Position numbers and translations under genes: made by a program
In this document: positions 45,011 through 61,944 of the stretch, piece after piece
Position numbering within the stretch: the stretch's first letter is position 1
Layout: every line of letters begins with the position of its first letter
The notes under the pieces: generated by a model
What the model was told of the DNA's origin: nothing
The model's input: the letters and a program-made list of their open reading frames with translations, nothing else
Database searches by the model: none
Origin: Diplolepis rosae
Lineage: Eukaryota > Arthropoda > Insecta > Hymenoptera > Diplolepididae
Direction: 5' to 3'
DNA: 64,000 nucleotides
Assembly: GCA_030998225.1 (NCBI GenBank)
Contig: JAPYXD010000710.1
Location: 32,565,501-32,629,500, forward strand

Positions 45011-45014
45011 CAAG
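45011..45014. other. target-site duplication, left copy (CAAG)
   Basis: CAAG immediately before the 5' LTR is repeated exactly at 61238-61241 after the 3' LTR. Four base pairs is the usual Ty3/Gypsy duplication length. Confidence 0.85.
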
Positions 45015-45162
45015 TGTCACGTCCCGCGACGCATTAGAATGTACTATAGGCATAGGCTAGGTCTAGAGAGAAATCTGGGGAAATTACTAAAAGAGAGAGA
45101 AAACCACCTATTGAAAAGAGAGGTATAACTACGTCACACGCAGCGGGAGACTGCGCAACGCG

Positions 45163-45216
45163 TGACGTCACCAAAAAATATAATATAAAAAGGACACGCC
45201 GCCAAGGGAAAACTAG
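45163..45216 (+). promoter_or_regulatory. LTR core promoter: CRE-like palindrome, TATA box, start region
   Basis: TGACGTCA (45163-45170) is followed by TATAAAA (45184-45190) and, about 28 bp further, CTAGTCTTGTGAGC. All three are kept in the diverged LTR at 41821-42308 despite extensive change elsewhere. This supports function. The start site itself is inferred from spacing. Confidence 0.65.
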
Positions 45217-45392
45217 TCTTGTGAGCAAAATTAAGTGCGGGAAATTTCTAAAATCTTAAAAGGATTCACAGCGTGAGATACGTGTTTAGTTCAGTTTTCC
45301 GAAGAAACGTGTCGTAAATTCTCTGATTGTACTTTCAATCTTTGAAAGGATCTTAGAGTCAGTGTAGAGTGAAATAACTATTCTTGTCCTCC

Positions 45393-45503
45393 TCACACCA
45401 GTGGGATATTTGTTTCTGTCTTCCTCACACCAGTGGGATACCTATTGCTGTCTTCGTCGCACCAGTGGAAGAATCTTTCTCTCTCCCTCACACCTGTGAG
45501 GAT
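45393..45503 (+). promoter_or_regulatory. four phased TCACACC(A/T)GTG repeats in the LTR
   Basis: Units start at 45393, 45425, 45457 and 45488 (period 32, 32, 31): TCACACCAGTGGGATA twice, TCGCACCAGTGGAAGA, and TCACACCTGTGAGGAT. The diverged LTR keeps three such units. The core looks like E-box/T-box half sites. Position downstream of transcription start recalls the repeated insulator-protein sites of gypsy 5' leaders, an analogy only. Confidence 0.55.
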
Positions 45504-45747
45504 CATTCATAAAAAAGGGACTATTCACAACTCAACAAAGGTACCGAAAATTCTCTCTATTCTTTACCTATTCCCTGTGCCATTGTTTGAATCATTGTAA
45601 AATTTTAACCTTGTTTATATCAGTGTTAATTTAAATAAATTCAATTTGTATTACTTTACTAATCATTGTGTACTTTTCATTGACTTATCCTCATCCCTAA
45701 GAGAGGATCATTCGATCCTAACTTAAAACGAGGAATCTTCGATCAAA

Positions 45748-45753
45748 GTAAGT
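45748..45753 (+). promoter_or_regulatory. splice donor in U5
   Basis: CAAA|GTAAGTAT is close to an ideal 5' splice site. The transcript between the inferred start (about 45212) and this donor contains no ATG that I could find, although AT-rich sequence of this length would normally hold several. The donor precedes the primer-binding site, so spliced mRNAs would lack it. Confidence 0.7.
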
Positions 45754-45790
45754 ATTTACGTACTTGTGACGTAACATACTTCCTTTTTTC

Positions 45791-45808
45791 TGGTGCATCG
45801 GCCGGGAA
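45791..45808 (+). other. primer-binding site, tRNA-Gly(GCC)
   Basis: TGGTGCATCGGCCGGGAA is the complement of the 3' end of insect tRNA-Gly(GCC) with its CCA. It lies 14 nt after the LTR end, a rather long spacer. Confidence 0.85.
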
Positions 45809-46688
45809 ACACAAGTCAATTGAAATTGAACACATTGGTTCTTAATAATAAATAAATAAATAAATAAATGATTATGAAATATTATTTCAACTTTAAAACT
45901 TAAAATTTCAATAAAATAGATTTGTTAGATCACAAAGGGATTTGACCTTGAGGCTAACCTTAATGATTTAATAATCAGATCATTTCTTTGAAATTTTATA
46001 ATTTATATAAATTGTTTAAAAATAAAATAAGTTTGAAAAATCACGCAGGGATCTGACCTTGAGGCTAACCTAAGTGATTAAGTAACTTATCTTATTTAAA
46101 AAGATATTCTAATTTGTTAACCAAGTTTTGATTTAAGTTAAAACAAACATAAAAAAAAACAGAATATTTTTATTTGCAAAAAAAAATTTTTTGTCCAAAG
46201 ATTTGCACTTAAGTTAACTTTTCCAATATAATAAAAATAATTTATGAATATTTCTAATGATCATTATTATAAACAAATTTGTTTAATTGTTATAAACAAT
46301 TTATAAATAAATAAAATAAATTATTTTAATTTTACATAAAGGGCACATGCAGTTGGTAAAGAAAAATATTTTATTATTTTAAGAAATTTATTATTAAAAA
46401 TTATAAATTTACAAACAATTGAGCGATTATTTATTTAATTTGAATATTTGAAATAATTATATTTTTATATCATTATTTTATTTTCAAATGACGAAATACA
46501 AATTTCATTTCAAATTATATTGTTATTAAAAATAAATAAACAAATTAAAAATAAATTTTACTAATCTCATTTTATTTTTCTTAAAAAACAAATTTTATAT
46601 ATAGTTTTTTTTATTGTTATAAACAAATTTAAAATAACAATAAACAATCAACGCTCAATACAAAATATTGTAAATTTATAATGACTCA
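45809..46688 (+). other. element leader, non-coding
   Basis: About 880 bp of very AT-rich sequence between the primer-binding site and the first ORF. It includes an (AAAT)n run near 45845-45870 and a pair of 44-bp direct repeats. It probably holds packaging/dimerisation signals; this is inference. Confidence 0.6.
45928..46081 (+). repeat. 44-bp direct repeat pair in the leader
   Basis: Copies at 45928-45971 and 46038-46081 share CTGACCTTGAGGCTAACCT-like cores with few differences and are much more GC-rich than the surroundings. Confidence 0.75.
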
Positions 46689-47195
46689 ATGTCAAAACCA
46701 AATATCCCTTTAGAATCTACCCCGAAAGTTATAACACGTAGTCAAGCTAAACACGATAGTCAGCTTGCAAAAATAGTAGATTTGAATCAAAAGGGTAATT
46801 TAAAAATAAAACCAATTAGAAATAGAGAATATTCAACTGATAATAAATGCCAAAATATCCCTGATCCAATCCCTACAGAACAAGAATTAGATAACACTCT
46901 TAAGTTAGATGATTCAAGTTTAGACAAGACTCTAATTAATAATCAAAATATATCACGTGAAAATTCAGAAAAAACTAGCGGCTTTCATTCAAGTTTCTGT
47001 CCAGATTTAAGCATTGTAACAGGATCCAGTAATCAAGATCAAACTCTAACGAATGAATTATCTTATTTTGACGAATTCAATTTGCTAAGCTCAACAGTAA
47101 TAACAGTAGATAATAAAACTTTGAAAGAAAGATTGGAAACCTCATTGGCACGCGAATCTATAATTAGTAACAACGAAAGCGACGTCTGCATTTAA
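46689..47195 (+). CDS. ORF1, 168 residues, gag position, no capsid domain
   Basis: It occupies the place of gag but is only 168 residues, hydrophilic and low in aromatic residues apart from the end, with VITRSQAKHDSQ near the N terminus. I see no capsid fold, zinc knuckle or protease motif. An upstream out-of-frame ATG at 46680 opens a tiny overlapping ORF. It may be the N-terminal remnant of Gag or a separate accessory protein. The following 250 bp are non-coding in the pol frame. Confidence 0.5.
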   Translation: MSKPNIPLESTPKVITRSQAKHDSQLAKIVDLNQKGNLKIKPIRNREYSTDNKCQNIPDPIPTEQELDNTLKLDDSSLDKTLINNQNISRENSEKTSGFHSSFCPDLSIVTGSSNQDQTLTNELSYFDEFNLLSSTVITVDNKTLKERLETSLARESIISNNESDVCI

Positions 47196-47446
47196 GTCTA
47201 CCAAACTATAATTGGCCACATCTAGGTTTATAATATCTTTGATATATCGTTCTCCCACTCCGAGGCCACTCGCCGCATCTAGGTTTATAATATCTTTGGG
47301 CATGTGTTGGCACAAACTGCATGGATTGCAAAATGCAGGATTCGTGTACATTTCCCTGAAGCGCTCTCTACCGCCTATATTTGATATATACTTGCAATTT
47401 TTGCCAACGCATTCCTTTCATAATCTTCGTCAAACATTGCTTTTAA
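47196..47446. other. junction segment replacing gag/protease sequence
   Basis: It contains a tandem-like repeat of CTAGGTTTATAATATCTTTG at 47222 and 47279. It is richer in GC than the neighbours. The minus strand reads two PKDIINLDA/IKDIINLDV units. Immediately after, the pol frame opens (stop at 47444) in the middle of what looks like the end of the protease (VLGSEFF). I infer a deletion with inserted filler; its source is unknown. Confidence 0.45.
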
Positions 47447-50400
47447 AATATAGAAGAAGATGGAGTATTGGGATCAGAATTTTTTCAAGATAATAGAGTG
47501 AATATAAACTATACTTCAAAATGCTTAGAAATTGAGAACCACTGTTACCCTTTTAAATCTACCAATACATTTACTATTCCAGCTCGAACAGTTACAACAT
47601 TTTATGTTAATATAAAAGATACAGAAAAGAGTGAAGGGTATGTACCTCGATTACATATCCAAGATGGCGTCTACGTAGGTGACGCAGTTGTAAAAAATCA
47701 CAGAGGAAAAGCTTATTTAAAATTTGCAAACACAAATGAAATCCCAATTACATTATCCGTCCCATTAGTTAATTTAGAAGACTTTGAAGAACAAGAATGC
47801 TATAAACAAATTGAAAATTTAATTAATTTCAAACAAACAAATAACGAAGATTTATCAAGTAAAATATTAAATAACTTTTTAAAAACTGACAATTCTCTAA
47901 TTAACTCATGCAAATTTTATAATGTAACAGACGAAGACAGAGTAGAATGTATTAAAAAACTTCTTCGATTAGACCATTTAAATCAAGATGAATATGAACA
48001 TGTAGAAAAATTAATTAAAAATAATGCAGACAGATTTCAAATCCCAGGAGAACCACTTGAAGCTACTAATGTATTACAACATTCAATTCCAACTGTAGAT
48101 GACGCTCCAATTTTTTCAAGACAATATAGATTTCCCCCAGTTCACAAGGAAGAAATTACAAGACAAGTCGATGAATTATTAAAAAATAAAATAATCAAGC
48201 CCTCACAATCACCATATAACACTCCAGTATGGATAGTTCCTAAAAAACCTGATTCTCAAGGAAAAATAAAATGGAGAATGGTTCTTGATTTTCGTAAATT
48301 AAATGAAAAAACAATTGGCGATTCGTATCCTTTACCTAATATAAACGATATACTTGATTCTCTAGGATCAGCAAAATATTTTTCAGTGTTTGATTTAGCT
48401 ACCGGTTTTCACCATATAAAAATGGATCCAAAAGACTCGCATAAAACCGCGTTTTCTACACCTCACGGTCATTACGAATTCGATAGAATGCCTTTCGGTT
48501 TAAAAACTGCACCTGCCACATTTCAAAGATTAATGGATTTAACATTAACTGGATTAATAGGAACGGAACTTTTTGTATATCTCGATGACATAGTTATATA
48601 TGCAAATACTCTAGAAGAGCACGAAATTAAATTTAACAATTTAGCAGAAAGACTTAGAAAAACAAATCTTCACTTACAACCAGACAAATGCGAATTTTTA
48701 CGACCTGAAGTAGGATATTTAGGTCATATAATTGATAAAAATGGAGTACGTCCAGATCCAAAAAAGATAATAGCTGTAAAAAACTTTCCAGTCCCAAAAA
48801 CACAGAAAAATGTTAAACAATTTTTAGGCTTAGCAGGATATTATAGACGATTTATTGATGGATTTTCAAAAATTGCAAGTCCTTTAAATCAACTTCTGAA
48901 AAAAGATACACCTTTTAATTGGACAGAAAAACAACAAGCAGCTTTCGAAATTTTAAAAGCAAAATTATGTGAAGAACCACTTTTACAACGACCTGATTTT
49001 TCTCAACCTTTTATACTCACAACAGATGCCTCAGGATTTGCAATAGGAGGTATTTTATCACAAGGTAAAATAGGTAAAGATAAGCCAATAGCATATGCTT
49101 CACGTAGTCTAAGTGATACTGAGAAAAAATATGATACATATGAGAAAGAAGCTCTTGCTATAATATTTTGTGTAACTCATTTTCGTCCTTATTTGTATGG
49201 GAGAAAATTTACTTTAGTGACTGATCACAAACCTCTAGTTTGGTTTCAAAATTCTAAAGACCCTTGTTCACGAGTTTCACGTTGGAGACTGAAACTCGCA
49301 GAATATGATTTTGATGTAATTTACAAAGCAGGAAAAATGAATGTAAATGCAGACGCTCTCTCAAGAAACCCTATTGATGATAACAAAGAGAAATCAAGAT
49401 ATTTACAAGTTGACGCCAATGATACTTTTATGACTTCCCAAGAAAAAATGTTTTCGAAGAAAACTTTTACAAGAAAAAAACAAGAAAACTCTAAAAATGA
49501 GGTAAGACCTTCAAAACGAAGAAACTTGAATCCAGAAATCGTACCAGACGACGTAGATCGTTTTAGCGAAATTTCGGAAGCCCAAATATTAAATATCGAC
49601 TCAAAAATCCCAGAATATTTCCAGGAATTTCTTAGTGAAGAATTATTTAGTGAGATTGGTAAGAATATTTTAAAATACACAAATTTATTCAAAAATATGG
49701 CTTCAAGACTTATTTTTATGACAATATTTTTATTAAGTCCAGTGTTTTCCAAAAAATACGAAAATTTATCATGGAAAACTATTACTACGAGAGCTCAAAA
49801 GAGAATAGAGCAAGAAAAAGCAAAAAATTTGAATCGAAACGAAACTCAAGAAAAATTAGACGAAAATTTTTCTTCTAAACCTCTTATGAAAAAACCACGA
49901 GGTAGGCCAATGAAAAATCTACTTACAAATTTGAAAAATATTCCCTCTCAAACAAAAAGAAAGAGAGGTAGGCCAAGAAAACAAATGTTTGAAAACGAAT
50001 TACCAGAAATAAATGTGCAAAAGGGAAGCCGAACAAAAGTAGAATCAGATTCCGACTCTGATCCTGATTATTTAGATTATTTGAAACAAACTCAAGCCAA
50101 AAATAAAAAGAAGAAGAATGCCAAGAAGCCAAAAAATATTAATGAATTTGAAAGTGAAGAAAGTGAGAATTATTTTTCAACCTCAGAAGATGAAATCAAC
50201 GACATTGAAACCTCACACGAAGGAAATGACGGAGAAAATTATGAAGAAAATTGGGAAGAGAATTTTGCAGATGATCTTGAAGACGATTTTGAAAAGAATT
50301 TCGAACAGAATTTTGAAGAAAATTTTGAAGACAATCTTGAGGAAAATTTTGATGAGAAGTTTGAAGAAAACCAAGAAGAAAAATTGGAAGAAGAATTTGA

Positions 50401-52027
50401 AGAGCCTTATTTTGAAGAAAATTTGAGATTAAACCGAAGATCTCAAATAAATTGTGAAAAAATCGATAAAGATCATGATAATTATAATCGTCCACCCCCA
50501 GAACCTCCTCCTATAAACTCTCAAACAGAAAAAATTATAACAAAGAAAAATTTAGTTGAATGTCGCGATCAATTAACTATGCGAAAAGATAATTATGCAT
50601 ATTTTGTTACAACAAATGGAACTCCTCGCGACAACGGATCAAAAATTTTAGAAAAACGTGAAACTTTACCAAAATTTAAAAATTTACAAAAGGGGATAGC
50701 AAAAGAGATTAAAAAAGGAAACTACTACCACTTTGCACTTCCAATTGAAGAAGAAACTAAAGATAATTTATCTGAAACTTTAAATAATATAAAATTATCA
50801 ATTCATTCATTACATGAATTATCTCAAAAATTTAAATTACGATCTATTAGTATATCAAAAACTTCCAGAATTAATCATATACCTTGGGAAGAAGTGAAAT
50901 CAATTTTCGATTCAATTTTTTCAAATTCAACTACAAAAATTATAGTTTGCAATGGAATAACGCAATATCCAACAAAGGAACAACGAACTCATTTAATTGA
51001 AGAAGCTCACTCCTCAGCATTAGGAGGCCATAAAGGCGTTACAAAAACTTATAGCCGAATTCGCCAAAAATTTTTTTGGGAAAATATGAAAGTAGACATT
51101 CAAAAATATATTCAAGGCTGTTTACAATGTCAACTGAAAAAATTAATCAGAGTCAAAACAAAAAACCCTATGGTAATCACTGACACACCCACTACTGCTT
51201 TTGAAAAAATATCAATGGACATTGTTGGTCCACTACCTGAAACAAAATCTGGTAACTTATATATTCTAACGATACAAGATAATTTTACCAAATATTCTTT
51301 AGCAATACCTCTTCCTAATCACCAAGCTAGTACGATAGCAGATGCTTTCGTGAAAAAATTTATTTGCATATTTGGATCACCGAAAGGAGTACTTACTGAC
51401 CAAGGCAGAGATTTTTTAAGTAATTTATTAAAAAGATTGGCAAAACGTTTTAGAATTAAACAATTTCGTACCACAGCATTTCACCCTCAATCAAACGGGT
51501 CATTAGAACGTTCACATCATGTTTTAGGAGAATATCTCAAACAATTTGTTGCAAAAAATTCAGAATGGGATGATTGGCTTGAACTAGCAATGTTCTCATA
51601 TAATACTAGTGTACATGAAGGCACAAAATACACACCCTATGAATTGGTTTTTGGTAAACTAGCTCGTGAACCTTCCAGTGAACCTTTATCACAACAAGAA
51701 AAATTACAAACATATGACGATTATTTAATTAATTTCGTAACACAACTACATGAAATGCGAACACAAGCAAGAGAAAATCTTCTTTCAGCAAAAGAAAAAT
51801 CGAAATTATATTATGACAAAAAAATAAGTCCTTTAGAAGTAAAAATTGGAGATTACGTGTTTTTATTAAAAGGAGGAAAAATTAAAAAACTTGACAGCCA
51901 TTATACAGGGCCTTATGAAATATTGGAAGTGTTAGGAAAAGGGAATGTCAAAATAAGCTATAAAGGCAAACCTACTGTTGTCCACATTAATAGACTAAAA
52001 CGCTCACATGTGCAAGTACAAAAGTAA
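47447..52027 (+). CDS. Pol polyprotein: RT, RNase H, AT-hook/acidic insert, integrase (Metaviridae)
   Basis: Residue numbers count from TTG 47468 as 1; the frame is open from 47447 and the first residues resemble a protease C terminus, with no catalytic DTG. RT: FDRMPFGLKTAPATFQ and YLDD (371-374). RNase H: D520, E561, D586, D629. Residues 640-1150 form an unusual insert: a hydrophobic segment (744-760), two AT-hooks RGRP (811-814 and 833-836), an acidic EENF-type repeat (924-988) and PPPEPPP (1009-1015). Integrase: H1181, H1188, C1218, C1221; D1251, D1311, E1347 (35 residues between the last two); GPY/F motif at 1479. All catalytic residues are present. There is no obvious start codon, so expression may need a fusion or a helper. 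Confidence 0.93.
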   Translation, partial: NIEEDGVLGSEFFQDNRVNINYTSKCLEIENHCYPFKSTNTFTIPARTVTTFYVNIKDTEKSEGYVPRLHIQDGVYVGDAVVKNHRGKAYLKFANTNEIPITLSVPLVNLEDFEEQECYKQIENLINFKQTNNEDLSSKILNNFLKTDNSLINSCKFYNVTDEDRVECIKKLLRLDHLNQDEYEHVEKLIKNNADRFQIPGEPLEATNVLQHSIPTVDDAPIFSRQYRFPPVHKEEITRQVDELLKNKIIKPSQSPYNTPVWIVPKKPDSQGKIKWRMVLDFRKLNEKTIGDSYPLPNINDILDSLGSAKYFSVFDLATGFHHIKMDPKDSHKTAFSTPHGHYEFDRMPFGLKTAPATFQRLMDLTLTGLIGTELFVYLDDIVIYANTLEEHEIKFNNLAERLRKTNLHLQPDKCEFLRPEVGYLGHIIDKNGVRPDPKKIIAVKNFPVPKTQKNVKQFLGLAGYYRRFIDGFSKIASPLNQLLKKDTPFNWTEKQQAAFEILKAKLCEEPLLQRPDFSQPFILTTDASGFAIGGILSQGKIGKDKPIAYASRSLSDTEKKYDTYEKEALAIIFCVTHFRPYLYGRKFTLVTDHKPLVWFQNSKDPCSRVSRWRLKLAEYDFDVIYKAGKMNVNADALSRNPIDDNKEKSRYLQVDANDTFMTSQEKMFSKKTFTRKKQENSKNEVRPSKRRNLNPEIVPDDVDRFSEISEAQILNIDSKIPEYFQEFLSEELFSEIGKNILKYTNLFKNMASRLIFMTIFLLSPVFSKKYENLSWKTITTRAQKRIEQEKAKNLNRNETQEKLDENFSSKPLMKKPRGRPMKNLLTNLKNIPSQTKRKRGRPRKQMFENELPEINVQKGSRTKVESDSDSDPDYLDYLKQTQAKNKKKKNAKKPKNINEFESEESENYFSTSEDEINDIETSHEGNDGENYEENWEENFADDLEDDFEKNFEQNFEENFEDNLEENFDEKFEENQEEKLEEEFEEPYFEENLRLNRRSQINCEKIDKDHDNYNRPPPEPPPINSQTEKIITKKNLVECRDQLTMRKDNYAYFVTTNGTPRDNGSKILEKRETLPKFKNLQKGIAKEIKKGNYYHFALPIEEETKDNLSETLNNIKLSIHSLHELSQKFKLRSISISKTSRINHIPWEEVKSIFDSIFSNSTTKIIVCNGITQYPTKEQRTHLIEEAHSSALGGHKGVTKTYSRIRQKFFWENMKVDIQKYIQGCLQCQLKKLIRVKTKNPMVITDTPTTAFEKISMDIVGPLPETKSGNLYILTIQDNFTKYSLAIPLPNHQASTIADAFVKKFICIFGSPKGVLTDQGRDFLSNLLKRLAKRFRIKQFRTTAFHPQSNGSLERSHHVLGEYLKQFVAKNSEWDDWLELAMFSYNTSVHEGTKYTPYELVFGKLAREPSSEPLSQQEKLQTYDDYLINFVTQLHEMRTQARENLLSAKEKSKLYYDKKISPLEVKIGDYVFLLKGGKIKKLDSHYTGPYEILEVLGKGNVKISYKGKPTVVHINRLKRSHVQVQK

Positions 52028-52275
52028 ATAAATAAAAATAGAAACAAAATATCTGTACCTTAATTATAAAAAAAAAAATATATATATATATATTTATATA
52101 TATATATACATATACAACTTAAATAAGATATAGAAATTTTATTTTGTCGATAAATAGTAAAAGTATAAAAAATAAAATTTTTTTTTTGGTTATGAAAATA
52201 TATGTTTTATATATAAAATAAAAAATATATATAAAACAAAATAAAAATGAATTTTCAGACATAACACATTATTCC
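52028..52275 (+). other. pol-CARD intergenic, (TA)n-rich
   Basis: About 250 bp of AT-only sequence with a TATA microsatellite (52078-52112), ending in the acceptor before the CARD ORF. Confidence 0.5.
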
Positions 52276-52282
52276 AGATATA

Positions 52283-52564
52283 ATGGAACAAATTCATCGC
52301 AAACGCATAGATGATCTCATTGAAATAGTTCCCTGTTTTATCGACATGGTAGCTCTCTGGCCATACTTAATTCAAACTGGAATTTTTAAGAAAGACGACT
52401 GCAATATCCCCACATGGAACAGAAATCTAAACAATCCAGAAATAATAAAAGACATTTTTTCAACAATCAAAACAAGAGGACCGGACGCATACAAAAATTT
52501 AATTCTCAGTTTACGGCTATCAAATCACATTGTCATAGCCGACATGTTGGATATAATGAACTAG
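52283..52564 (+). CDS. CARD-only protein (93 residues)
   Basis: The whole 93-residue ORF fits a caspase-recruitment domain. It has helices with ELIE-like and PYLIQTGIF segments (a 'length-of-one-helix, then GIF/GIL' turn), then II..IF..IKTRGPDAY (54-70) and a last helical block NLILSLRLSNHIVIADML (72-89). The RGP-AY block is typical of CARDs of insect initiator caspases. There is no protease or other domain. An acceptor TTCCAG lies 5 nt before the ATG. A CARD-only protein can interfere with apoptosome-caspase contact; blocking host-cell death is my inference. It lies just before the env1 ORF and overlaps its open frame but not its likely start. Confidence 0.75.
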   Translation: MEQIHRKRIDDLIEIVPCFIDMVALWPYLIQTGIFKKDDCNIPTWNRNLNNPEIIKDIFSTIKTRGPDAYKNLILSLRLSNHIVIADMLDIMN

Positions 52565-52683
52565 GAACGCAAAATACAAAAAGTAAATCAATAACTTCAA
52601 AAATATACATATTTAATGATAAAACATTTTCCTATTCTTATATTACAAAGCAAGCTGCTAATTGGAACCTCCTTTTTCCAGAG

Positions 52684-54714
52684 ATGGGATTACGAGGCTT
52701 CCTTTTGGCACTGCTCACTTGCAACTTCAACTATATAACAACAGTCTACGCCATCATAGGATTCGATTGCGGTTCAAATCAATCAAATATTACGACATTA
52801 TCTTTACTAGAGGTAGGAGAATGTGATCTACCTCGATCTCAAGTACATGTTGAAAGAACTTATATACAACTTTTACAATTAACTGGATTTTCAAATACAA
52901 AAGTAATACAATGCAAAATAGAAATTCGACGCGCCATCTCTCATTGTGGTATGCATTCTCACAGTTCCATAGTAGCAAATGGCCACAGTGAATATATACA
53001 TGATGTTACACGAGATCAATGTAATCAAATGCACACAATAGGAACATTTTTAGTAACCCCTTCTCTTCAGATATCAAAGTTAAAAGTAAATGAAACTTCA
53101 TTTCATAGCGTTACTTTAGCAGGTTCTGTAACACCTAATGGAGACTGTACTGGTACACAATTTTCTGACCCATACGGAACATGGAATAATGTCGTAGTCC
53201 AAGCAATATTCAAAATAACTTTACAAGAACATTACGCGACTATTCATTTAAATTCAAATAAAATTCAATTAGGATCTGGAATAATATGCACACTTTCAGA
53301 CACATTCTGTACTGACGTAGAATATGGACAAACATTCTGGGATACATTACCTAATGACGTATGTAATTTTAACAAATATGAAATTATTTATGAAGGACCA
53401 GCAAATAAGACCTATGACAACACGACAGACAATTCTGAAACCTTTTATTCTTTAACGACTGAGGATATAACTTTCGTACTAGCTGAAAAAACAAGAAAAC
53501 CAGTTTGCAGTTACGTTTTAATACAAACCGAACATCCAAAATTATTAATTTTTGAAACCAGACCTGGAAATTCATTTTTAGAAAATAAACATTTAGAAGT
53601 TCAAAATATGGACATTTTCACATACGTCAATTCTAAATTTATATATGTAGAACGACACATACGCACTGAAGTAAATAGACTTTATCACGATGTTCTTACT
53701 CAACGATGCATACTTGAACAGCAAGTTTTTAGAAATACATTAACCTTAGCAACCCAATCACCAGACGAATTTGCATATCATTTAATGAAAGGCCCAGGAT
53801 ATATGTCAGTAATTGCAGGAGAAGTAGTACATATCGTAAAATGTATACCGGTTGAAGTAAAATATCGCAAAACTGAAGAATGTTATCTACAACTACCAAT
53901 ATTTAGAGGAAATCAATCCTTTTTCCTTTCTCCACGAACTCATATATTAACAAAATCAGGTATCCAAACAAATTGCAATTCTTTCCTTCCACCAATGTAC
54001 CTTTTTGGAGAAACCTGGTACAAATTACTTCCAAATCCTGTCGAATCCATAGCACCAACTATAGTTAAACCTCTCACAAAAGCAACCTGGAAATACACAA
54101 ATCCTTCATCCTTAGCAACAAGTGGCATTTATTCTCAATCTGATCTTGATAAACTGCGAGATCATATTATGTTTCCAGCAGAAAAACCAATGATTCTAAA
54201 TTCTTTAGCTAGAGAAATAACAGGACATCCAACTATTAATCAAGGAATATCATTAACGAATTTATTTAATGAAGATGTAATTGATAAAATTGCTGAATCC
54301 GCATGGGGTAGATTTTGGACAATTTTTACAAGTTTTGGAACTACTAGTGCAGGCCTAATTGGATTAATAATAATAATTAGAGGGATTAAATTGATAGCTG
54401 ATACCATTATTCATGGATATGCGCTACACAGATTATTTGGATGGTCTCTCCATCTACTAGGCGCCTTCTGGGATTCGGTCACTAACCTCTTATTACACTT
54501 AGGTACCCATCGACCTTCTGGACCTCCTGCTGAGAGTCATCAAGAACTGCTAACAGCTTCAGCACCACAAAGCTCGAAAGAGGCACCTAAAAGTCCATCG
54601 TATTACGCAAACACTACTTCAGGTAAAGATCACAATAATACAAACACAACTCTTTATCCTCACTCTGAATTAAAAGAAGAACTTAGTAGAACCCACTACT
54701 CTATCCAAATCTAA
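52684..54714 (+). CDS. Env1: chuvirus-like (G-type) membrane glycoprotein
   Basis: The frame is open from 52414, but the likely start is ATG 52684, two bases after the acceptor TTTTTCCAG. The product is 676 residues. A signal peptide (MGLRGFLLALLT...YA) is followed by GFDCGSNQSNIT (26-37), resembling the N terminus of glycoproteins of chuvirus-like negative-strand viruses. There are many Cys and several N-glycosylation sites. A C-terminal transmembrane segment (about 551-573) is followed by a second hydrophobic/amphipathic stretch and a hydrophilic tail of about 70 residues. Such G genes are known as captured env genes in LTR elements. No frameshift or stop interrupts it. Family assignment is from motif impression, not a search. 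Confidence 0.7.
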   Translation: MGLRGFLLALLTCNFNYITTVYAIIGFDCGSNQSNITTLSLLEVGECDLPRSQVHVERTYIQLLQLTGFSNTKVIQCKIEIRRAISHCGMHSHSSIVANGHSEYIHDVTRDQCNQMHTIGTFLVTPSLQISKLKVNETSFHSVTLAGSVTPNGDCTGTQFSDPYGTWNNVVVQAIFKITLQEHYATIHLNSNKIQLGSGIICTLSDTFCTDVEYGQTFWDTLPNDVCNFNKYEIIYEGPANKTYDNTTDNSETFYSLTTEDITFVLAEKTRKPVCSYVLIQTEHPKLLIFETRPGNSFLENKHLEVQNMDIFTYVNSKFIYVERHIRTEVNRLYHDVLTQRCILEQQVFRNTLTLATQSPDEFAYHLMKGPGYMSVIAGEVVHIVKCIPVEVKYRKTEECYLQLPIFRGNQSFFLSPRTHILTKSGIQTNCNSFLPPMYLFGETWYKLLPNPVESIAPTIVKPLTKATWKYTNPSSLATSGIYSQSDLDKLRDHIMFPAEKPMILNSLAREITGHPTINQGISLTNLFNEDVIDKIAESAWGRFWTIFTSFGTTSAGLIGLIIIIRGIKLIADTIIHGYALHRLFGWSLHLLGAFWDSVTNLLLHLGTHRPSGPPAESHQELLTASAPQSSKEAPKSPSYYANTTSGKDHNNTNTTLYPHSELKEELSRTHYSIQI

Positions 54715-54724
54715 CATCTTCAGA

Positions 54725-55462
54725 ATGTCGCATGTTCCTTTTACAACCTTACTAAACAAAATTATTCAACAAAGAGGAGATCCACCCCTGATTTATGAGA
54801 TACTCATTGAACAAACCAATAATAATGAATGTCTATTTCACGTTAATTTACAATATAAAAATTTTATAATAATGAATAGTGGCAAAGATAAAGAAAATGT
54901 AAAGCAAAAGGTAGCACAAAATTTATATAATGCCTTAATTAATGAATCAAAGGAAACAAATCAAAACGTCCAACCAAACTCTATTAGTAAAAATTGCAAA
55001 AAATTAAACGAAATTTGCACTGAAAATAAATTTGAGTATCCAAAATATACAGTATTACGAATAAAAACCTCATCAAAAGACTCAACATACATAGCAATTT
55101 GTTTCATTAATAACATTAAACAAATAGGAATAGCAAACTCAATAAAAACAGCTAAGGATTTTGCTGCCATAAAAGTTATTAATTCTCTTTCGCATAAAGA
55201 CGAGAAATGTGAACTACGTTTGATAAACTCACTAGAACATTTGCATGTAACAATTCAAGAATCATCTATAAACGATCCAAAACCTTCAACGAGTAGCCAA
55301 ATAACAAAACCTATTACTTCAAATAACTATCGTGATAAAAATACAAATTCATATAAAATGAAAACAAATAATAATCATACTGCATCATCTTTCTCTACGA
55401 AAAGCTTTAAAAAATGTTTTAAATGCGGATATAGACCTCCCAACCAGTACAATAAATTCTAA
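54725..55462 (+). CDS. tandem dsRNA-binding-domain protein with half zinc knuckle
   Basis: 245 residues. dsRBD1 is at about 5-73 (TLLNKIIQQRGDPPLIYE, CLFHVNLQYKN, then the basic helix VKQKVAQNLYNAL). dsRBD2 is at about 91-156 (KLNEICTENKFEYPKYTV, then KTAKDFAAIKVINSL). A Ser/Thr/Asn-rich linker leads to C231-x2-C234 near the C terminus, the first half of a CCHC knuckle, after which the frame ends. The N-terminal contact Lys cluster of dsRBD1 is less basic than usual. An acceptor CTTCAG lies one base before ATG, 8 nt after env1 ends. The expected role is binding dsRNA or small RNAs, perhaps suppressing RNAi (inference). Confidence 0.75.
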   Translation: MSHVPFTTLLNKIIQQRGDPPLIYEILIEQTNNNECLFHVNLQYKNFIIMNSGKDKENVKQKVAQNLYNALINESKETNQNVQPNSISKNCKKLNEICTENKFEYPKYTVLRIKTSSKDSTYIAICFINNIKQIGIANSIKTAKDFAAIKVINSLSHKDEKCELRLINSLEHLHVTIQESSINDPKPSTSSQITKPITSNNYRDKNTNSYKMKTNNNHTASSFSTKSFKKCFKCGYRPPNQYNKF

Positions 55463-55499
55463 TATAAACATTCCATACCGATTCAGGAAATCAACTGCA

Positions 55500-56060
55500 A
55501 TGGAGCATTACTACGACGAGCCTACACACGTACCAAGTTACCCAAAAAAGAAATACAGAACAGACTCCATGGGATTTTTAAATCATGTAGAAATTTTAAG
55601 AAACTTCACGATAAAATATGGACTGCCGTTACCGCAATATACAGTCTATCCTGATCCGAATTCGAAAACAAACTCATTTTTTCTCGCACAAATTAATATA
55701 AATGAACATTTCGTTATACAAGCCGGCCCTACTAGTGAATTAGCAGAAAATAGAGCAGCTTTAAAATTATTATTACTACTAATAAGATCATATGATCTCT
55801 GCGACGAAAAATTTTATAATAATGATGATAAAAAAAGGCAAAAAACCAAAAATCAAAGTATTCAAACCGATCCAAGACCAAAATTAATACCTTGGGAAAA
55901 TTCCTGTAGATTTTGTAACACTCAAATGCATGCTACAAAAGAGTGCCGTAGACGAAATATTTTTAAGGTAGACAAATCAACCCAATCCCCCCTCCAGTTC
56001 CACCAAGAAACTCCTCAACATTTAGTAGACTTTTTTCCCCTTTTCTCCAAAAACTTCTAG
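55500..56060 (+). CDS. single dsRBD plus CCHC zinc-knuckle protein
   Basis: 186 residues. The dsRBD lies at 27-95 (FLNHVEILRNFTIKYGLPLP, SFFLAQININEHFV, ELAENRAALKLLLLLI). A complete CCHC knuckle sits at C136, C139, H144, C149 (CX2CX4HX4C), as in retroviral nucleocapsids. A TTCAG acceptor at 55482-55486 precedes the ATG by 13 nt. The domain pair suggests descent from the same ancestor as the two other dsRBD ORFs of the element. It may act as RNAi suppressor or as a nucleocapsid-like RNA chaperone. Confidence 0.75.
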   Translation: MEHYYDEPTHVPSYPKKKYRTDSMGFLNHVEILRNFTIKYGLPLPQYTVYPDPNSKTNSFFLAQININEHFVIQAGPTSELAENRAALKLLLLLIRSYDLCDEKFYNNDDKKRQKTKNQSIQTDPRPKLIPWENSCRFCNTQMHATKECRRRNIFKVDKSTQSPLQFHQETPQHLVDFFPLFSKNF

Positions 56061-56141
56061 ACCTAAATCCAACCATATGTAAACATCCTATTTTATCCAA
56101 TATTAATCCTACTTTTCTTTTTCAGCCTTCCGAGAAGCCTA

Positions 56142-57923
56142 ATGAATTTCCTTAATCAACTAGCATCCAGAGTGTATTTAATTTTAATTCCACTCCTTTT
56201 CTCCAAAGCAGAAAAATACTTCATAGACTCACAATTTTCTCATTCTTCAGGGATTTATTTTGAACCAATTTCAAAAGTTCGTCTTTTTTCTGAAAAATAT
56301 CATTTTATATCTTATATCGATATCTTTCAGCCAGACGTACTTAAATACAAAATAATAGATTTCTCACATAAATTATATGAATATTGCATACTCTCAAATA
56401 TTGCCAATAATTGTAATTTATACGATCATCAGACACAACTTGATTTTATAGAACAACGCATCAACTATTTTCTTGAAGAAATATCATTTATATCTAGACA
56501 AGCTCGTAATATCACGAATATTTCTAACACTAATGATCCATTCTTGCAACAGATACAAAAAGTACTTTTAGAATTAAGAATGAGAAATGAAACCTCCCTT
56601 TACTGGCCCAAAGAAAATTTATTTCTACTTCCTAATCCATTTTTCCAAAAAGTTGCAAATCTTTCTTCAAAACTTGACAACATTATGACCTACAAAAAAT
56701 GGCATAATTCTCAAAAAGATCAAAATATTCACCTATATCGAATATTAGCAGCAAATTGGCTTAAAGACCTGCATGAAATTTCTCAATCTTTTCTTTTACT
56801 CCTTGACCAACTTACAGAAGCTATTACTCATGCCGCAACTAATTTATGGCACCCTATGCTACTTCCTGATACCTTCTTAGACTTCAAATCCAACAAAAAA
56901 GACCCACACCTTTCAACATCCCTTTTTTCTATGGTCCTTCCATTTTCTAAAATACAATACTTCTTATTCGATAAGTACTTGATTTTTATTATGACTATAC
57001 CAATCCCATCTGCTGAAGAATTTCAATTATTTAAACCACATCCAATTCCAATACATCTCGATTTTAATACTGACGTAATTTCCTCTATTTACATAAAACC
57101 TCAAAATTCTTATCTCGCTATTTCTTCAAATAACCAATCATACTTTAAAACAAATGAAAATTTCCTCAATGCATGTTATCAAAATGGATTCCAAACATTT
57201 TGTCACCCACCAAGATCTATATCTAACATCGATAACAATCCTATTTGTGAAACATCAATGTTTCTAAATTCAGAACCATACAAGTGTAAAATATTCATCA
57301 GTTTTAGTGAATATCCCTTTCTAACACCATTGCAATTTCATCATGGATGGCTATACTCAACAATTTTCCCCCGACAAATTTTCTTATCATGTCGAAAAAA
57401 CTCTAAGACCTTAATCACACTCCAAGGAATAGGAATTTTGCAAACAAAATCAGGTTGCAATCTAGATTCATCAACTCCATATTACCATCTTCAAAACCAT
57501 TTGAATATAATGGATAATTCAATTCCAGTCAGCAAATCAACTACTTCCCTTGCTATAATTTCACCATTTTTATATAATATTTCCATTCAAGAGCCTCACT
57601 TACTAAAAAAGGTATTACTTCTTCTTCAGCAAAAAGAAGACATGCCATTATCAATCTTCGAAAACCATGTCTTTATCCTTACAAAATATGCAAACATTCA
57701 AAAAATCATTCCATCAATTTTTATTTCTAGTGCACATAAATTAACATTAGCACTAATCTTTATCACTTTACTTATGATTACAATTTTAGGATTATTACTA
57801 TTGAAAATTCAAAAAATATCTAAAAAAATAAACAAAACGCCAACACGTATAGAACTTATACAAAAAACTCCTTTAAGCTCAGTGACAAAACCTTTACTGA
57901 CCGACTTAACGTTTAACTTTTGA
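56142..57923 (+). CDS. Env2: baculovirus F / errantivirus-type envelope protein
   Basis: 593 residues. A signal peptide (1-23) precedes GIYFEPISKVRLFSEKYHF (about 37-55), the N-terminal signature of F-like and insect errantivirus Env proteins. A helical middle ends near a LTEAITHAATNLWHPMLLP block, also typical of that family. A Cys-rich C-terminal half is followed by a transmembrane segment (about 534-555) and a 38-residue basic tail. The only RXXR is RQAR (119-122), not followed by a recognisable fusion peptide, so proteolytic activation is doubtful. A strong acceptor TTTTCTTTTTCAG lies 16 nt before ATG. Two unrelated envelope types in one element is highly unusual. Confidence 0.7.
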   Translation: MNFLNQLASRVYLILIPLLFSKAEKYFIDSQFSHSSGIYFEPISKVRLFSEKYHFISYIDIFQPDVLKYKIIDFSHKLYEYCILSNIANNCNLYDHQTQLDFIEQRINYFLEEISFISRQARNITNISNTNDPFLQQIQKVLLELRMRNETSLYWPKENLFLLPNPFFQKVANLSSKLDNIMTYKKWHNSQKDQNIHLYRILAANWLKDLHEISQSFLLLLDQLTEAITHAATNLWHPMLLPDTFLDFKSNKKDPHLSTSLFSMVLPFSKIQYFLFDKYLIFIMTIPIPSAEEFQLFKPHPIPIHLDFNTDVISSIYIKPQNSYLAISSNNQSYFKTNENFLNACYQNGFQTFCHPPRSISNIDNNPICETSMFLNSEPYKCKIFISFSEYPFLTPLQFHHGWLYSTIFPRQIFLSCRKNSKTLITLQGIGILQTKSGCNLDSSTPYYHLQNHLNIMDNSIPVSKSTTSLAIISPFLYNISIQEPHLLKKVLLLLQQKEDMPLSIFENHVFILTKYANIQKIIPSIFISSAHKLTLALIFITLLMITILGLLLLKIQKISKKINKTPTRIELIQKTPLSSVTKPLLTDLTFNF

Positions 57924-58260: not shown

Positions 58261-58668
58261 ATGATACCAATTCCAAGTGAACCTATTGTTAACCATCTTG
58301 GACCAGTAGACGGTGTATGTCCGCAAGACTATCCGATAGCATACGCGCACTTATTACAGAGCTATTGCTTCGAATTAGAACCTTCAACATTGTTTTTATA
58401 TTATAATCACCAAACCACAAAAAGATATTGCCAATTCTGTTTCGAGAAATTAGATGAGGAAACTCAAAATAACTGTGAATTTTTTACATCATGGCATTCC
58501 ATTTGTAAATTGGAATGCATATATATGAATTGTTACGGTTGTCAAGAACTATTAATTACTCCGCGAAAAAGAGCAGCTGATTGTAGAGAATGTATCGAAC
58601 AATATTTAAATTATAAATTCGAAATTAGTCAAGGAAACGAAGTTCTAGTAGAAAATACCCCTGCATGA
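58261..58668 (+). CDS. CX2C zinc-binding-type accessory protein A
   Basis: 135 residues with 11 Cys. CX2C pairs lie at 57/60, 91/94 and 108/111, with further Cys at 20, 36, 72, 82 and 86. The last two pairs are separated by 13 residues, exactly as in the next ORF, and PRKRAADC resembles its RQRADLC. A zinc-ribbon or treble-clef fold is likely. I do not recognise the family. An acceptor TTTGTAG lies 3 nt before ATG. The protein is small and acidic at the ends, without signal or membrane segment. Confidence 0.65.
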   Translation: MIPIPSEPIVNHLGPVDGVCPQDYPIAYAHLLQSYCFELEPSTLFLYYNHQTTKRYCQFCFEKLDEETQNNCEFFTSWHSICKLECIYMNCYGCQELLITPRKRAADCRECIEQYLNYKFEISQGNEVLVENTPA

Positions 58669-58807
58669 TTATACGTATCTACCTTCCACGCATGTAATCA
58701 CGCATGAAAAATTTTGTTAAATTTAATAAAATCCTTAATACTAAAAAATTGTAAATTTTACAAATATTTCAAATTCCTTAAATATTGTAAATTTCCCCAA
58801 CAGAAAA

Positions 58808-59239
58808 ATGCTGCCCCAAGAAATCGAAACAATCGAAGCAGTAGAAGTTCGAGCAAGCGAGCAGGATGTTCAGCCGTATTTTGAAAATCAATTATGGTCA
58901 GAATACTGCTGCACAACCCTGGTCGAGAATTTTTACATGAATGTTCTCGAAAAAAAACTTGTTTGCGAAGATTGTTGGATGACAGAACTCAGCTTTTTCG
59001 AAACCGAAGTAACATTACCCGTCCGAATAGACCACATAGTTACTAAAGACTTATATTGTACGTTAAAACTATCTAGCCTCGACTGCTCCATTTGCAATAC
59101 ACAAATTTTTTACATGCGGCAAAGAGCAGATTTATGTGTAACTTGTGCCGAACGTGTAATTCATTTATACCAACAAGAAGCACTGTATAACGACGTCGAT
59201 TCCGAAGCATCGACTATTATTTATAACAACGACGAATAA
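58808..59239 (+). CDS. CX2C zinc-binding-type accessory protein B (paralogue of A)
   Basis: 143 residues. CX2C pairs lie at 53/56, 93/96 and 110/113, plus C34, C35 and C84. CX2C-X13-CX2C and the R-x-R-A-D-x-C block match the preceding ORF, so the two arose by duplication. Acidic N and C termini could act in nuclear or transcription roles, but there is no direct clue. The acceptor TTCCCCAACAG lies 4 nt before ATG. Confidence 0.65.
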   Translation: MLPQEIETIEAVEVRASEQDVQPYFENQLWSEYCCTTLVENFYMNVLEKKLVCEDCWMTELSFFETEVTLPVRIDHIVTKDLYCTLKLSSLDCSICNTQIFYMRQRADLCVTCAERVIHLYQQEALYNDVDSEASTIIYNNDE

Positions 59240-59586
59240 AAATAATAAATCAAAACATATTTTTTATTATTCTTTCTTCTAAATATAAACAATATCTATT
59301 ACTAACTTTTGTTAAAAAATTTTCGCTTTTAATTTTTTATTCGTTGTTTAAAATCATATTTCATATACACCACTACTTCTTCCTTAACCACCATAATGTA
59401 ACAACAAACCTTAATAAATTAAAATGTTCTTAAAAACAGACCACTGTTTTCTCTGCATGAAATATCTCTTTGAGTTAGGAAACGCGAAAAGTGAATATAT
59501 CAACAAACACAAAATTATTACAAAAAAAAACTAACTAACTTTAGAATTTCAATAAATTCAATCATCAACTCAAATAGGTAATTCTT
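59240..59586 (+). other. intergenic within element
   Basis: 347 AT-rich bases with no ORF, ending in the acceptor TTCTTTTGCAG (AG at 59591-59592) of the next gene. Confidence 0.5.
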
Positions 59587-59601
59587 TTGCAGATAAAAAC
59601 A

Positions 59602-60050
59602 ATGGCCTTGCAGACAAGAGACCTATCGAAAGGCACGGCTGTACAAGTTTTAAACGAGATAAGCATTGAGTATGATTTCTCCGAACCCTCATATACTGTA
59701 AAATCGCTTGGAAAACACCAAGAACTGCCACCGTTCCAAGCGACTTGCGAAATTTTTAAAAATAAAATAACTTTTTCTTGTATTGGGGAACCAGCCCCTC
59801 AAAAAAGTCTGCAAAGCAAAATGCAGCATCTAAACTCTTGGAAATGCTTTCCACAAGATATGTATTTTTAGAAGAAATGAAAGAAAAAAGCTTAATCCCA
59901 GAAACGAGAATTTTCAAAATAAATGATGAAATCAGTAAAGAAACCTTGCCAAAATGGACCAACTCTTGTGAAAGGTGTTTTCAAAGAGGGCATTTAGCTC
60001 ATAACTGCCGCAACCCTTTACGTAATAGAAAATATAAAAATAATTCTTAA
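59602..60050 (+). pseudogene. third dsRBD-CCHC gene, split by a one-base frameshift
   Basis: From ATG 59602 the frame encodes the first part of a dsRBD (TAVQVLNEISIEYDF, then FQATCEIFKNKITF). The second half of the domain (KKSAKQNAASKLLEML) and a complete CCHC knuckle (CERCFQRGHLAHNC) are in the -1 frame, ending at 60050. The change falls near the run of six A at about 59799-59804. It may be a disabling mutation, a sequencing error, or slippage on the A run; the reading-frame split at the run is not the canonical retroviral heptamer phase. The acceptor CTTTTGCAG lies 9 nt before ATG. Confidence 0.7.
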
Positions 60051-60462
60051 AAATCTACATTATGAAATTACGTTTTATATTACAGTTTTATATATTATTA
60101 TTTTATATTAAATGATATTTATAATTTACGAATATGAAATAAAAATTATTGATGTATTTAGTTATATAAGAAAAAATCATATGTAACCTTATGTTAAGTT
60201 CATACTATTTCAAAAAGCTATGTAATTATTTATAACAAAAAAAATTATAATATTTAGATAATATAAAATTTTATGACATCAAAAAAAATCGATATTGGAA
60301 TCAAATAGTCAAATGCAAAAAATACAAATTGTAAAAGAGACGCCGAAATGAATGTTGGTTATTACGTCAGAAATAGAAATTCAATGTATCTTCAAAAACA
60401 TTAACGAATGTATTCTTCTTCCGAAGATTCGATCGCGGATGCTTCACCCCCGCGCTCGAACT
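60051..60462 (+). other. 3' untranslated region of the element
   Basis: AT-rich, no ORF, leading to the GC-richer sequence just before the polypurine tract. Confidence 0.5.
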
Positions 60463-60475
60463 AGGGGGGGGGAGG
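60463..60475 (+). other. polypurine tract
   Basis: AGGGGGGGGGAGG directly abuts the TG start of the 3' LTR, as required for plus-strand priming. It is unusually G-rich. Confidence 0.85.
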
Positions 60476-61237
60476 TGTCACGTCCCGCGACGCATTAGAA
60501 TGTACTATAGGCATAGGCTAGGTCTAGAGAGAAATCTGGGGAAATTACTAAAAGAGAGAGAAAACCACCTATTGAAAAGAGAGGTATAACTACGTCACAC
60601 GCAGCGGGAGACTGCGCAACGCGTGACGTCACCAAAAAATATAATATAAAAAGGACACGCCGCCAAGGGAAAACTAGTCTTGTGAGCAAAATTAAGTGCG
60701 GGAAATTTCTAAAATCTTAAAAGGATTCACAGCGTGAGATACGTGTTTAGTTCAGTTTTCCGAAGAAACGTGTCGTAAATTCTCTGATTGTACTTTCAAT
60801 CTTTGAAAGGATCTTAGAGTCAGTGTAGAGTGAAATAACTATTCTTGTCCTCCTCACACCAGTGGGATATTTGTTTCTGTCTTCCTCACACCAGTGGGAT
60901 ACCTATTGCTGTCTTCGTCGCACCAGTGGAAGAATCTTTCTCTCTCCCTCACACCTGTGAGGATCATTCATAAAAAAGGGACTATTCACAACTCAACAAA
61001 GGTACCGAAAATTCTCTCTATTCTTTACCTATTCCCTGTGCCATTGTTTGAATCATTGTAAAATTTTAACCTTGTTTATATCAGTGTTAATTTAAATAAA
61101 TTCAATTTGTATTACTTTACTAATCATTGTGTACTTTTCATTGACTTATCCTCATCCCTAAGAGAGGATCATTCGATCCTAACTTAAAACGAGGAATCTT
61201 CGATCAAAGTAAGTATTTACGTACTTGTGACGTAACA
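60476..61237 (+). repeat. 3' LTR (762 bp)
   Basis: Identical by eye to the 5' LTR, with AATAAA at 61095-61100 and followed by the second CAAG at 61238-61241. The 64-residue minus-strand ORF found in both LTRs is incidental. Confidence 0.93.
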
Positions 61238-61944
61238 CAAGAATAAGAATAAAACGTGAGCTGCTTTGATAACCAAGCTTATAGCTACAAGTAGAAACAT
61301 TACCGGGAACAGTAGCGACTTACTTGCCAGTCCAATATAATGTTTTCAAAAATTCTTCGCTTAAGAATGGGGAGGCTTCTGAACGTCGCTCATACTTCAG
61401 ACGCGAGGCATCTCCGGCCTCTCAATTGTACAAGTATACAACACTTAGAATTAAGATAAACTCAGTAAGAAGATAATAATTAGCACAATAAAGAACCTAT
61501 TACAAAACCTACAATACAATCTTCAGAGATCAGTTACAAATCAGTCATTTGCATTATAAATTAACGCGAATCGTCGAATTAGCACAATATCTGACTGGTC
61601 GCGCTTTGTGCGCATGAGCAGCACAGAAAACGCGGGATGTCTAAGCAGCCGTTAGCAACCGCTGCTAACTTCTTACATATCAGCGCAAAATTTTAAAAGT
61701 TACGAGTACGAATTTTGAGATTTTCTAGGAGAGTAAACTGTTTTAGCAGCAACAACCAAATGATTAGCTACAACTCTTAATACGCTAAGGAGTCCAATGC
61801 AAATTTTCAACTTCGATTGCAGCTAACATTTTTTAACTGTCCCAGCAAACTGTTAAGTCTCTCAGCAAACTTTTTATCAATCACAATTAACTAGTCGACA
61901 GCTAACTGCAGTTAGCAGTAGCAGAAATTTCATTTTTTTCCGTG

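What the first reader, a model, noticed from the sequence alone, without database searches (positions are those of the whole stretch)
45011..61241. A 16-kb, apparently intact-ended, multi-gene retrovirus-like Metaviridae element
Seen: matching 762-bp LTRs, CAAG target duplication, tRNA-Gly primer site, G-rich polypurine tract, Pol, two envelope-type genes and at least six further ORFs. Known: insect errantiviruses normally carry gag, pol and one env in 7-9 kb. An element with this accessory set is, to my knowledge, not a standard category. I infer a lineage of complex endogenous retrovirus-like elements in insects.
Basis: partly seen in the sequence, partly recalled or inferred. Interest (0 to 1): 0.95.

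Follow-up and report, generated by a model that had tools for sequence, protein, structure and literature searches.

The report
Insect retrovirus-like element with defence-countering genes
This is a recently inserted, gag-deleted copy of a large (about 17.6 kb) retrovirus-like element in an insect genome whose family carries two envelope-type genes plus proteins that look built to block the host's cell-suicide and RNA-interference defences, a gene set that I did not find described for such elements.

Summary
Positions 45011-61241 hold an LTR element with identical 762-bp LTRs, CAAG duplications, a primer site matching host tRNA-Gly and a G-rich tract. Pol is Ty3/gypsy-type. Nested insertion is not supported: CARD and dsRBD1 each gave 150 scored genomic places (a cap), and all 106 pairs found within 8 kb have the same order. 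CARD and dsRBD3 show codon-level constraint (omega about 0.22, crude). The family was active recently: the 40 best-scoring LTR places are 100% identical; older copies exist too.

Here about 1.7 kb of gag and protease is replaced by 266 bp identical to another locus, and dsRBD3 is split over two frames. The copy probably moved with proteins from fuller, about 17.6-kb copies.

Best reading: a Metaviridae endogenous-retrovirus-like family with a complex accessory set, likely countering apoptosis (CARD-only decoy) and RNAi (dsRBDs). Anatomy is shown; functions are inferred from fold, sequence and precedents in DNA viruses.

The parts
45011..45014 (.). target-site duplication, CAAG (left)
   Evidence: sequence
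45015..45776 (+). 5' LTR, 762 bp, TG...CA
   Evidence: identical to the 3' LTR; the 40 places scored of 1854 candidates in the genome are all 100% identical to it, this pair included
45374..45503 (+). 3-4 tandem 32-bp repeats inside the LTR (also at 60835-60964), possibly promoter/enhancer repeats
   Evidence: role inferred
45791..45808 (+). primer-binding site, complementary to the 3' end of host tRNA-Gly(gcc)
46689..47184 (+). N-terminal fragment of gag (rest deleted; the reading frame ends at 47195)
   Evidence: gag is 626 aa open in 7 of 9 other copies examined
47185..47450 (+). 266-bp foreign segment replacing about 1.68 kb of gag/protease; 47174-47452 is 100% identical to another genomic locus
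47447..52027 (+). pol (C-terminal part of protease, RT, RNase H, integrase with GPY motif), open over 1526 aa
49889..49981 (+). two AT-hook-like motifs (KKPRGRPMK, KRKRGRPRK) in a long linker between RNase H and integrase
   Evidence: motif name recalled, function untested
52283..52564 (+). CARD-only protein, 93 aa (reading frame opens at 52265)
   Evidence: Pfam CARD at E<=1 in 16 of 23 aligned members, best 1.3e-5; predicted six-helix fold matches CARDs; omega ~0.22
52684..54714 (+). env1: Monjiviricetes-type fusion glycoprotein, likely starting at 52684 before a signal-peptide-like stretch (frame open from 52390; start inferred)
   Evidence: PF24664, E 7.7e-248, from residue 98 of the frame opened at 52414
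54725..55462 (+). dsRBD1: protein with two dsRNA-binding domains and a C-terminal CxxC
   Evidence: PF00035, E 1.2e-11, two stretches
55500..56060 (+). dsRBD2: one dsRBD plus a C-terminal CCHC-like motif
   Evidence: PF00035 20.7 bits, below the cut-off of 23
56142..57923 (+). env2: Baculo_F-type envelope; no R-x-[K/R]-R furin motif, one minimal RXXR
   Evidence: PF12259, E 1.7e-23, best stretch residues 219-555; motif scan
58261..58668 (+). Cys-rich protein 1 (three CxxC pairs)
   Evidence: no Pfam family above cut-off
58808..59239 (+). Cys-rich protein 2, related to protein 1
   Evidence: BLASTP E 0.004 to protein 1; 33 homologues
59578..60050 (+). dsRBD3 + CCHC knuckle, split over two frames in this copy
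   Evidence: the open form of another copy scores PF00035 27.3 bits, above cut-off
60464..60475 (+). polypurine tract (G-rich)
   Evidence: sequence
60476..61237 (+). 3' LTR
61238..61241 (.). target-site duplication, CAAG (right)
   Evidence: sequence

Best explanation
The window holds a young, defective provirus of a multi-copy, about 17.6-kb Metaviridae (Ty3/gypsy-type) endogenous-retrovirus-like family of an insect. Shown: LTR element with tRNA-Gly priming site; gag and protease in other copies; pol; two glycoprotein genes of different origin; a CARD-like gene; three dsRBD genes; two related Cys-rich genes. Inferred: genomic RNA starts in the 5' LTR. Downstream genes are made from spliced or reinitiated RNAs. 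Env1 is the membrane fusogen, and env2, which lacks a full furin consensus, is an accessory surface protein. The CARD-only protein acts as a decoy for the insect apoptosome (Dark/Dronc), keeping infected cells alive. The dsRBD proteins bind dsRNA or siRNA and blunt Dicer-2/R2D2/Loqs-dependent RNAi, which a spreading element would otherwise trigger. This copy lost gag/protease when reverse transcriptase switched to another cellular RNA and back, so it was probably packaged and integrated with proteins supplied by fuller copies.
Confidence: 0.67

Rival explanations
1. The dsRBD proteins are not RNAi suppressors but structural RNA proteins: their zinc knuckles and dsRBDs bind the element's own structured RNA for packaging, export or translation control (Rev-like or nucleocapsid-like).
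For: All three carry C-terminal Cys or Cys/His motifs; dsRBD2 and dsRBD3 have CCHC-type spacing, as found in Gag.
Against: Gag of other copies already carries two CCHC motifs (translation). dsRBD3 has the KKSAK signature at helix 2 that is typical of dsRNA-binding dsRBDs (significance recalled). The nearest, weak PDB matches are RNAi-pathway proteins: Loqs and R2D2 for dsRBD1, Dicer-like 1 for dsRBD3.
Confidence: 0.3
2. The accessory block is a set of separate nested insertions or cellular sequences that happen to lie between the LTRs of this copy.
For: This copy does contain one captured 266-bp foreign segment.
Against: Fixed order in the 106 CARD-dsRBD1 pairs found, 93 with the same spacing, and no other arrangement within 8 kb; of 30 fetched LTR loci 22 are 3' LTRs preceded by the dsRBD3 region, and the zf2 end aligns in the same 22; the window self-comparison lists no repeat pair inside the internal region.
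Confidence: 0.02
3. The CARD-like ORF is a by-product of the overlapping env1 leader frame and not a real protein.
For: It overlaps the upstream part of the env1 frame, and its own Pfam score is under the cut-off.
Against: Synonymous excess in the CARD frame only (omega 0.22; 2.97 and 1.28 in the other two frames); 141 of 150 scored copies without a stop by my count; 51 homologues in the protein database, 58-96% identical where they cover 90% or more of the query; the Pfam env1 match starts at residue 98 of the env1 frame, that is at 52705, after the CARD stop at 52564.
Confidence: 0.07
4. The family is a dead-end genomic parasite: the accessory genes are passengers kept only by recent amplification.
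For: Many copies are so young that they have had no time to decay; dsRBD2 and pro-pol show weak constraint over mixed old and young copies.
Against: Relatives of about 70-90% protein identity with full-length ORFs for dsRBD1, CARD and Cys-rich 2; CARD and dsRBD3 omega 0.22.
Confidence: 0.15

Closest known systems
Insect errantiviruses / iERVs (Ty3/gypsy with F-type env; PMC12992720, passages read)
   Same: Metaviridae-type pol, LTRs, Baculo_F-type envelope gene after pol, insect host
   Different: Those carry gag, pol and env-F with conserved furin site and fusion peptide. Here a second, unrelated glycoprotein, a CARD, three dsRBD and two Cys-rich genes are added, env2 has no full furin consensus, and fuller copies are about 17.6 kb
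Anakin (BEL-Pao element with chuvirus glycoprotein, mosquitoes; PMC7642597, abstract and outline read)
   Same: LTR element that carries a chuvirus-type glycoprotein inside its LTRs
   Different: Pol here matches Ty3 best, not shown to be BEL-Pao. A 2023 survey noted gypsy fragments beside such glycoproteins in Hymenoptera and Coleoptera, one complete but unclassified element in Bemisia, and no clear capture by gypsy (PMC10084718, passages read)
Iridovirus accessory proteins: 340R (dsRBD RNAi suppressor, PMC4231766, abstract) and GIV-CARD (PMC4457926, abstract)
   Same: Same kinds of small proteins, with tested RNAi and apoptosis suppression
   Different: They belong to large DNA viruses; no sequence kinship was shown. 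Only weak fold matches to iridovirus CARD proteins (best E 2.2)
Bdelloid rotifer LTR elements with captured ORF3 genes (PMC5408684, abstract read)
   Same: LTR elements that acquire extra genes, one lineage with an envelope from a negative-strand RNA virus
   Different: The abstract describes a varied ORF3 (env-like, esterase or exonuclease), not a block of eight genes
Complex vertebrate retroviruses (recalled)
   Same: Multiple small accessory genes beside gag-pol-env, some against host defence
   Different: RT is nearer to Ty3 than to retroviruses, different accessory folds, insect host

Membership tests
Metaviridae (Ty3/gypsy) | RT closest to Ty3 and not to Retroviridae | tested here: met
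   PDB search, best 60 of 205 shown: Ty3 E 1.7e-85; 8r0s 'Enzymatic polyprotein' (caulimovirid, recalled) 1.4e-55; 8wus 'Gag-Pol polyprotein' (MLV-type, recalled) 3.8e-36. No tree was made
Metaviridae (Ty3/gypsy) | order RT-RNase H-integrase, integrase GPY module | tested here: met
Metaviridae (Ty3/gypsy) | LTRs with TG...CA, short TSD, tRNA primer site, polypurine tract | tested here: met
Errantivirus / iERV clade | F-type envelope with furin site and fusion peptide | tested here: inconclusive
   PF12259 match present; no R-x-[K/R]-R, one minimal RXXR at residue 119, no strongly hydrophobic window near it at the threshold used. A weak site is not excluded
Errantivirus / iERV clade | RT monophyly with gypsy-clade errantiviruses | not tested
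   no reference set of errantivirus RTs was at hand
Belpaoviridae (Anakin-like) | BEL-Pao-type pol | tested here: inconclusive
   Ty3 RT is by far the best solved match, but no BEL-Pao reference was compared
CARD superfamily | six-helix CARD fold | tested here: met
CARD superfamily | Pfam CARD above cut-off | tested here: inconclusive
   window copy below (15.5 against 23.9 bits); 16 of 23 members (window plus 22 of the 51 homologues) match at E<=1, best 1.3e-5; one homologue carries PF00619 in the precomputed table
dsRBD proteins | PF00035 above cut-off | tested here: met
   dsRBD1 45.4 bits, dsRBD3 of another copy 27.3; dsRBD2 20.7, below 23
Viral RNAi suppressors | binds dsRNA/siRNA and blocks Dicer-2 or RISC loading | not testable with these tools
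   needs biochemistry

The most novel reading that the evidence does not exclude
Insects host a lineage of complex retroviruses of Ty3/gypsy descent: infectious elements that combine a negative-strand-RNA-virus-type fusogen with a baculovirus-type envelope and carry a dedicated counter-defence set, a CARD-only inhibitor of the apoptosome and several dsRBD suppressors of RNAi. That would be complexity of the kind known from vertebrate complex retroviruses, evolved independently and with different parts.
Probability: 0.4. Interest if true: 0.92.

Novelty: new variant of a known kind. Interest (0 to 1): 0.84.

Why it matters
Insect endogenous retroviruses are usually seen as gag-pol-env elements held down by piRNAs. 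A family that was active very recently and carries predicted inhibitors of apoptosis and siRNA would show that LTR elements also evolve direct counter-defence. It would give a gene-by-gene test of whether retroelements fight RNAi and cell death, and it shows a chuvirus-type glycoprotein inside a gypsy-type element, which a 2023 survey looked for and did not clearly find (PMC10084718, passages). It also gives a recent example of retroelement template switching that captured cellular sequence.

Tried and rejected
Nested insertions: not supported. Divergent LTRs: rejected. A complete copy in the window: rejected. The 266-bp segment as a piece of gag: rejected, no long match; its likely source is another locus, and its 91-aa minus-strand frame has no Pfam match. 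Troyka: not it (PMC12440569 abstract: 3-bp TSD and CG ends; here 4-bp TSD and TG...CA). Relatives in viral contigs: none with env2, the CARD alignment, the dsRBD1 alignment or env1. Cys-rich 2 fold: model too poor (pLDDT 47) and no convincing PDB match. Env1 against PDB sequences: no meaningful match. CARD sequence against PDB: no CARD among the hits; only the fold comparison finds CARDs. Stop counts for env1 were read in a wrong frame and are not used. Searches used env1 from 52705, where the Pfam match begins; the likely start codon is 52684 (found on re-check). Print: the listings of ten paper searches showed no LTR element with a CARD or dsRBD block; a review-type paper on accessory domains of retrotransposons holds neither term in its main text (PMC6338049, passages). 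Only open-licence PMC papers are covered, and the main survey of metazoan envelope-carrying gypsy elements (Chary and Hayashi, eLife 108449, seen as a reference only) is not held, so its content is unknown to me.
Full report
1. Anatomy. The primer site at 45791-45808 equals the complement of the 3' end of host tRNA-Gly plus CCA. The 21-base tRNA end is found 8 times in the genome (0 for the reversed control), and both of two fetched loci are tRNA-Gly(gcc) by ARAGORN. A G-rich tract precedes the 3' LTR. Pol has RT, RNase H, integrase zinc and core domains and a GPY motif. Among solved structures its RT is closest to Ty3 (1.7e-85), then 8r0s (1.4e-55; a caulimovirid, recalled), then retroviral enzymes.

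2. Genes after pol. In order: CARD-like protein (52283-52564); env1 with PF24664 Monjiviricetes fusion glycoprotein at 7.7e-248, probable start 52684; dsRBD1 with two dsRBD stretches (1.2e-11); dsRBD2 (20.7 bits, just under the cut-off of 23); env2 with PF12259 Baculo_F (1.7e-23); two Cys-rich proteins with three CxxC pairs each that are related to one another (BLASTP E 0.004); and dsRBD3 with a CCHC knuckle. dsRBD3 is split over two frames here and is one open frame in 14 of 22 loci (the window included among the 8 broken); in an open copy it scores above the Pfam cut-off (27.3 bits). Env2 has no R-x-[K/R]-R motif and one minimal RXXR at residue 119; its best Pfam stretch is residues 219-555. 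That recalls nucleopolyhedroviruses that pair a class III fusogen with a fusion-dead F protein (recalled, not tested).

4. The dsRBDs. Nearest solved sequences are weak but all from RNAi-pathway proteins: Loquacious (E 0.0049) and R2D2 (about 0.025) for dsRBD1, Dicer-like 1 (E 0.0009) for dsRBD3 of another copy. dsRBD1 and dsRBD3 are related (BLASTP E 3.7e-4).

5. A real family. Protein dsRBD1 gave 150 scored matches of 1320 candidates in the own genome, CARD 150 of 1185 (58 identical), and LTR 40 of 1854, all 40 at 100% identity. The caps make these lower bounds, and the scored LTR places are the best ones: LTR starts of only 88-94% identity also occur among the 20 fetched 5' stretches, so older copies exist. 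Of 150 CARD places 106 have a dsRBD1 place downstream on the same strand within 8 kb, 93 of them at 2460 +/- 60 bp, and none lie in any other arrangement within 8 kb; the other 44 had no dsRBD1 there among the 150 scored. Nine pairs of identical LTRs were found: the window pair spans 16.2 kb, the other eight 17.6-18.0 kb. With 762 identical bases the window insertion is likely younger than some hundred thousand years (rate recalled).

6. What is broken here. Of 20 fetched 5' stretches 15 break at the same two element positions relative to the window, and 0 of 20 share its 266-bp segment. Of the other five, two match only from the right break onward, two have larger deletions across the place, and one gave only a short match further on. 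In 13 of the 15 the place holds about 1.68 kb and in two less. Gag is one open frame of 626 aa in 7 of 9 copies examined, with protease in the overlapping frame; Pfam sees only the knuckles and a protease, all below cut-off. In the window the gag C-terminal part and the protease N-terminal part are gone. Positions 47174-47452 are identical to another locus (locus L078), with an 11-base overlap at the left join that matches the element with one difference, and two bases at the right. Among the scored matches the whole junction occurs only in the window locus. Template switching during reverse transcription, with proteins supplied in trans, explains a gag-less copy that nevertheless has perfect LTRs and TSDs; this is inference.

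7. Selection. Unique substitutions against a reference copy were classed as synonymous or not and compared with random placement. CARD (8 copies): 26 synonymous, 23 not, omega ~0.22, 0/1000 shuffles reach it; the other frames give 2.97 and 1.28. dsRBD3 (21 copies): 10 and 9, ~0.22, 19/1000. dsRBD1 (16 copies): 43 and 96 (stops included), ~0.55, 3/1000. dsRBD2 (16 copies): 51 and 158, ~0.76, 84/1000. Gag (14 of the 20 5' stretches; one was the reference and five were left out beforehand): 23 and 47, ~0.49, 18/500. Pro-pol start (19 of 20): 22 and 67, ~0.76, 115/500. So the crude values of the accessory genes are of the same order as those of gag and pol, and CARD and dsRBD3 lower, though not on the same copies. 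Limits: old dead copies dilute the signal, CARD and dsRBD1 copies came from protein-ranked lists, and dsRBD3 rests mostly on one split between two subfamilies. Relatives in public assemblies keep full-length ORFs at lower identity: dsRBD1 36 proteins, CARD 51, Cys-rich 2 33, many of them partial. All are ENA-sourced and unnamed, so species are unknown.

8. Host. 124 insect odorant-receptor matches, many in tandem on one contig, and 0 of 14 control genomes: an insect. Large tandem arrays suggest Hymenoptera (recalled; not shown).

9. Known or new. Insect ERVs are described as gag, pol and env-F with furin site and fusion peptide (PMC12992720, passages). Chuvirus-type glycoproteins are known inside BEL-Pao elements (PMC7642597, abstract). 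A 2023 survey saw gypsy fragments near such glycoproteins in Hymenoptera and Coleoptera but no clear capture by gypsy (PMC10084718, passages). Viral dsRBD and CARD proteins with tested functions exist in iridoviruses (PMC4231766, PMC4457926, abstracts). The listings of ten searches showed no LTR element with this block; the survey most likely to hold one is not in the library. I therefore call it a new variant of a known kind.

10. Changes on re-check. The env1 start was moved to 52684, the errantivirus furin test was lowered from 'not met' to 'inconclusive', the Dicer-like match of dsRBD3 and the weak Pfam scores of gag/protease were added, and confidence in the best explanation was lowered by 0.01 for the last point.

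Noticed in passing
window 41974-42261: An older relative of the LTR (81% identical, opposite strand) lies about 3 kb left of the element.
   Followed up: no
window 1528-2174, 30373-30841, 34991-35576; 36961-37393 and 62409-62840; 7122-8013 and 63260-63471: Several other dispersed repeat families occur in the window (pairs of 77-94% identity); outside the element no reading frame of 140 aa or more was found.
   Followed up: partly
window 49889-49981: Two AT-hook-like motifs in a long charged linker between RNase H and integrase; could steer integration to AT-rich chromatin (inferred).
   Followed up: no
window 58975-60474 compared with 21 other 3'-LTR loci: Copies fall into two subfamilies that differ by about 2-3% from the end of zf2 through dsRBD3 while the last 237 bp of zf2 differ by 0-4 bases, which suggests recombination between subfamilies.
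   Followed up: partly
window 47219-47241 and 47276-47298; genome-wide: The captured segment holds a 23-bp direct repeat, and part of it (query 130-284) belongs to a dispersed repeat, 93-95% identical in most of the scored places, part of which also matches in the opposite orientation nearby.
   Followed up: no
window 45791: The primer site begins 14 nt inside the LTR edge, further than I would expect for retroelements (expectation recalled).
   Followed up: no
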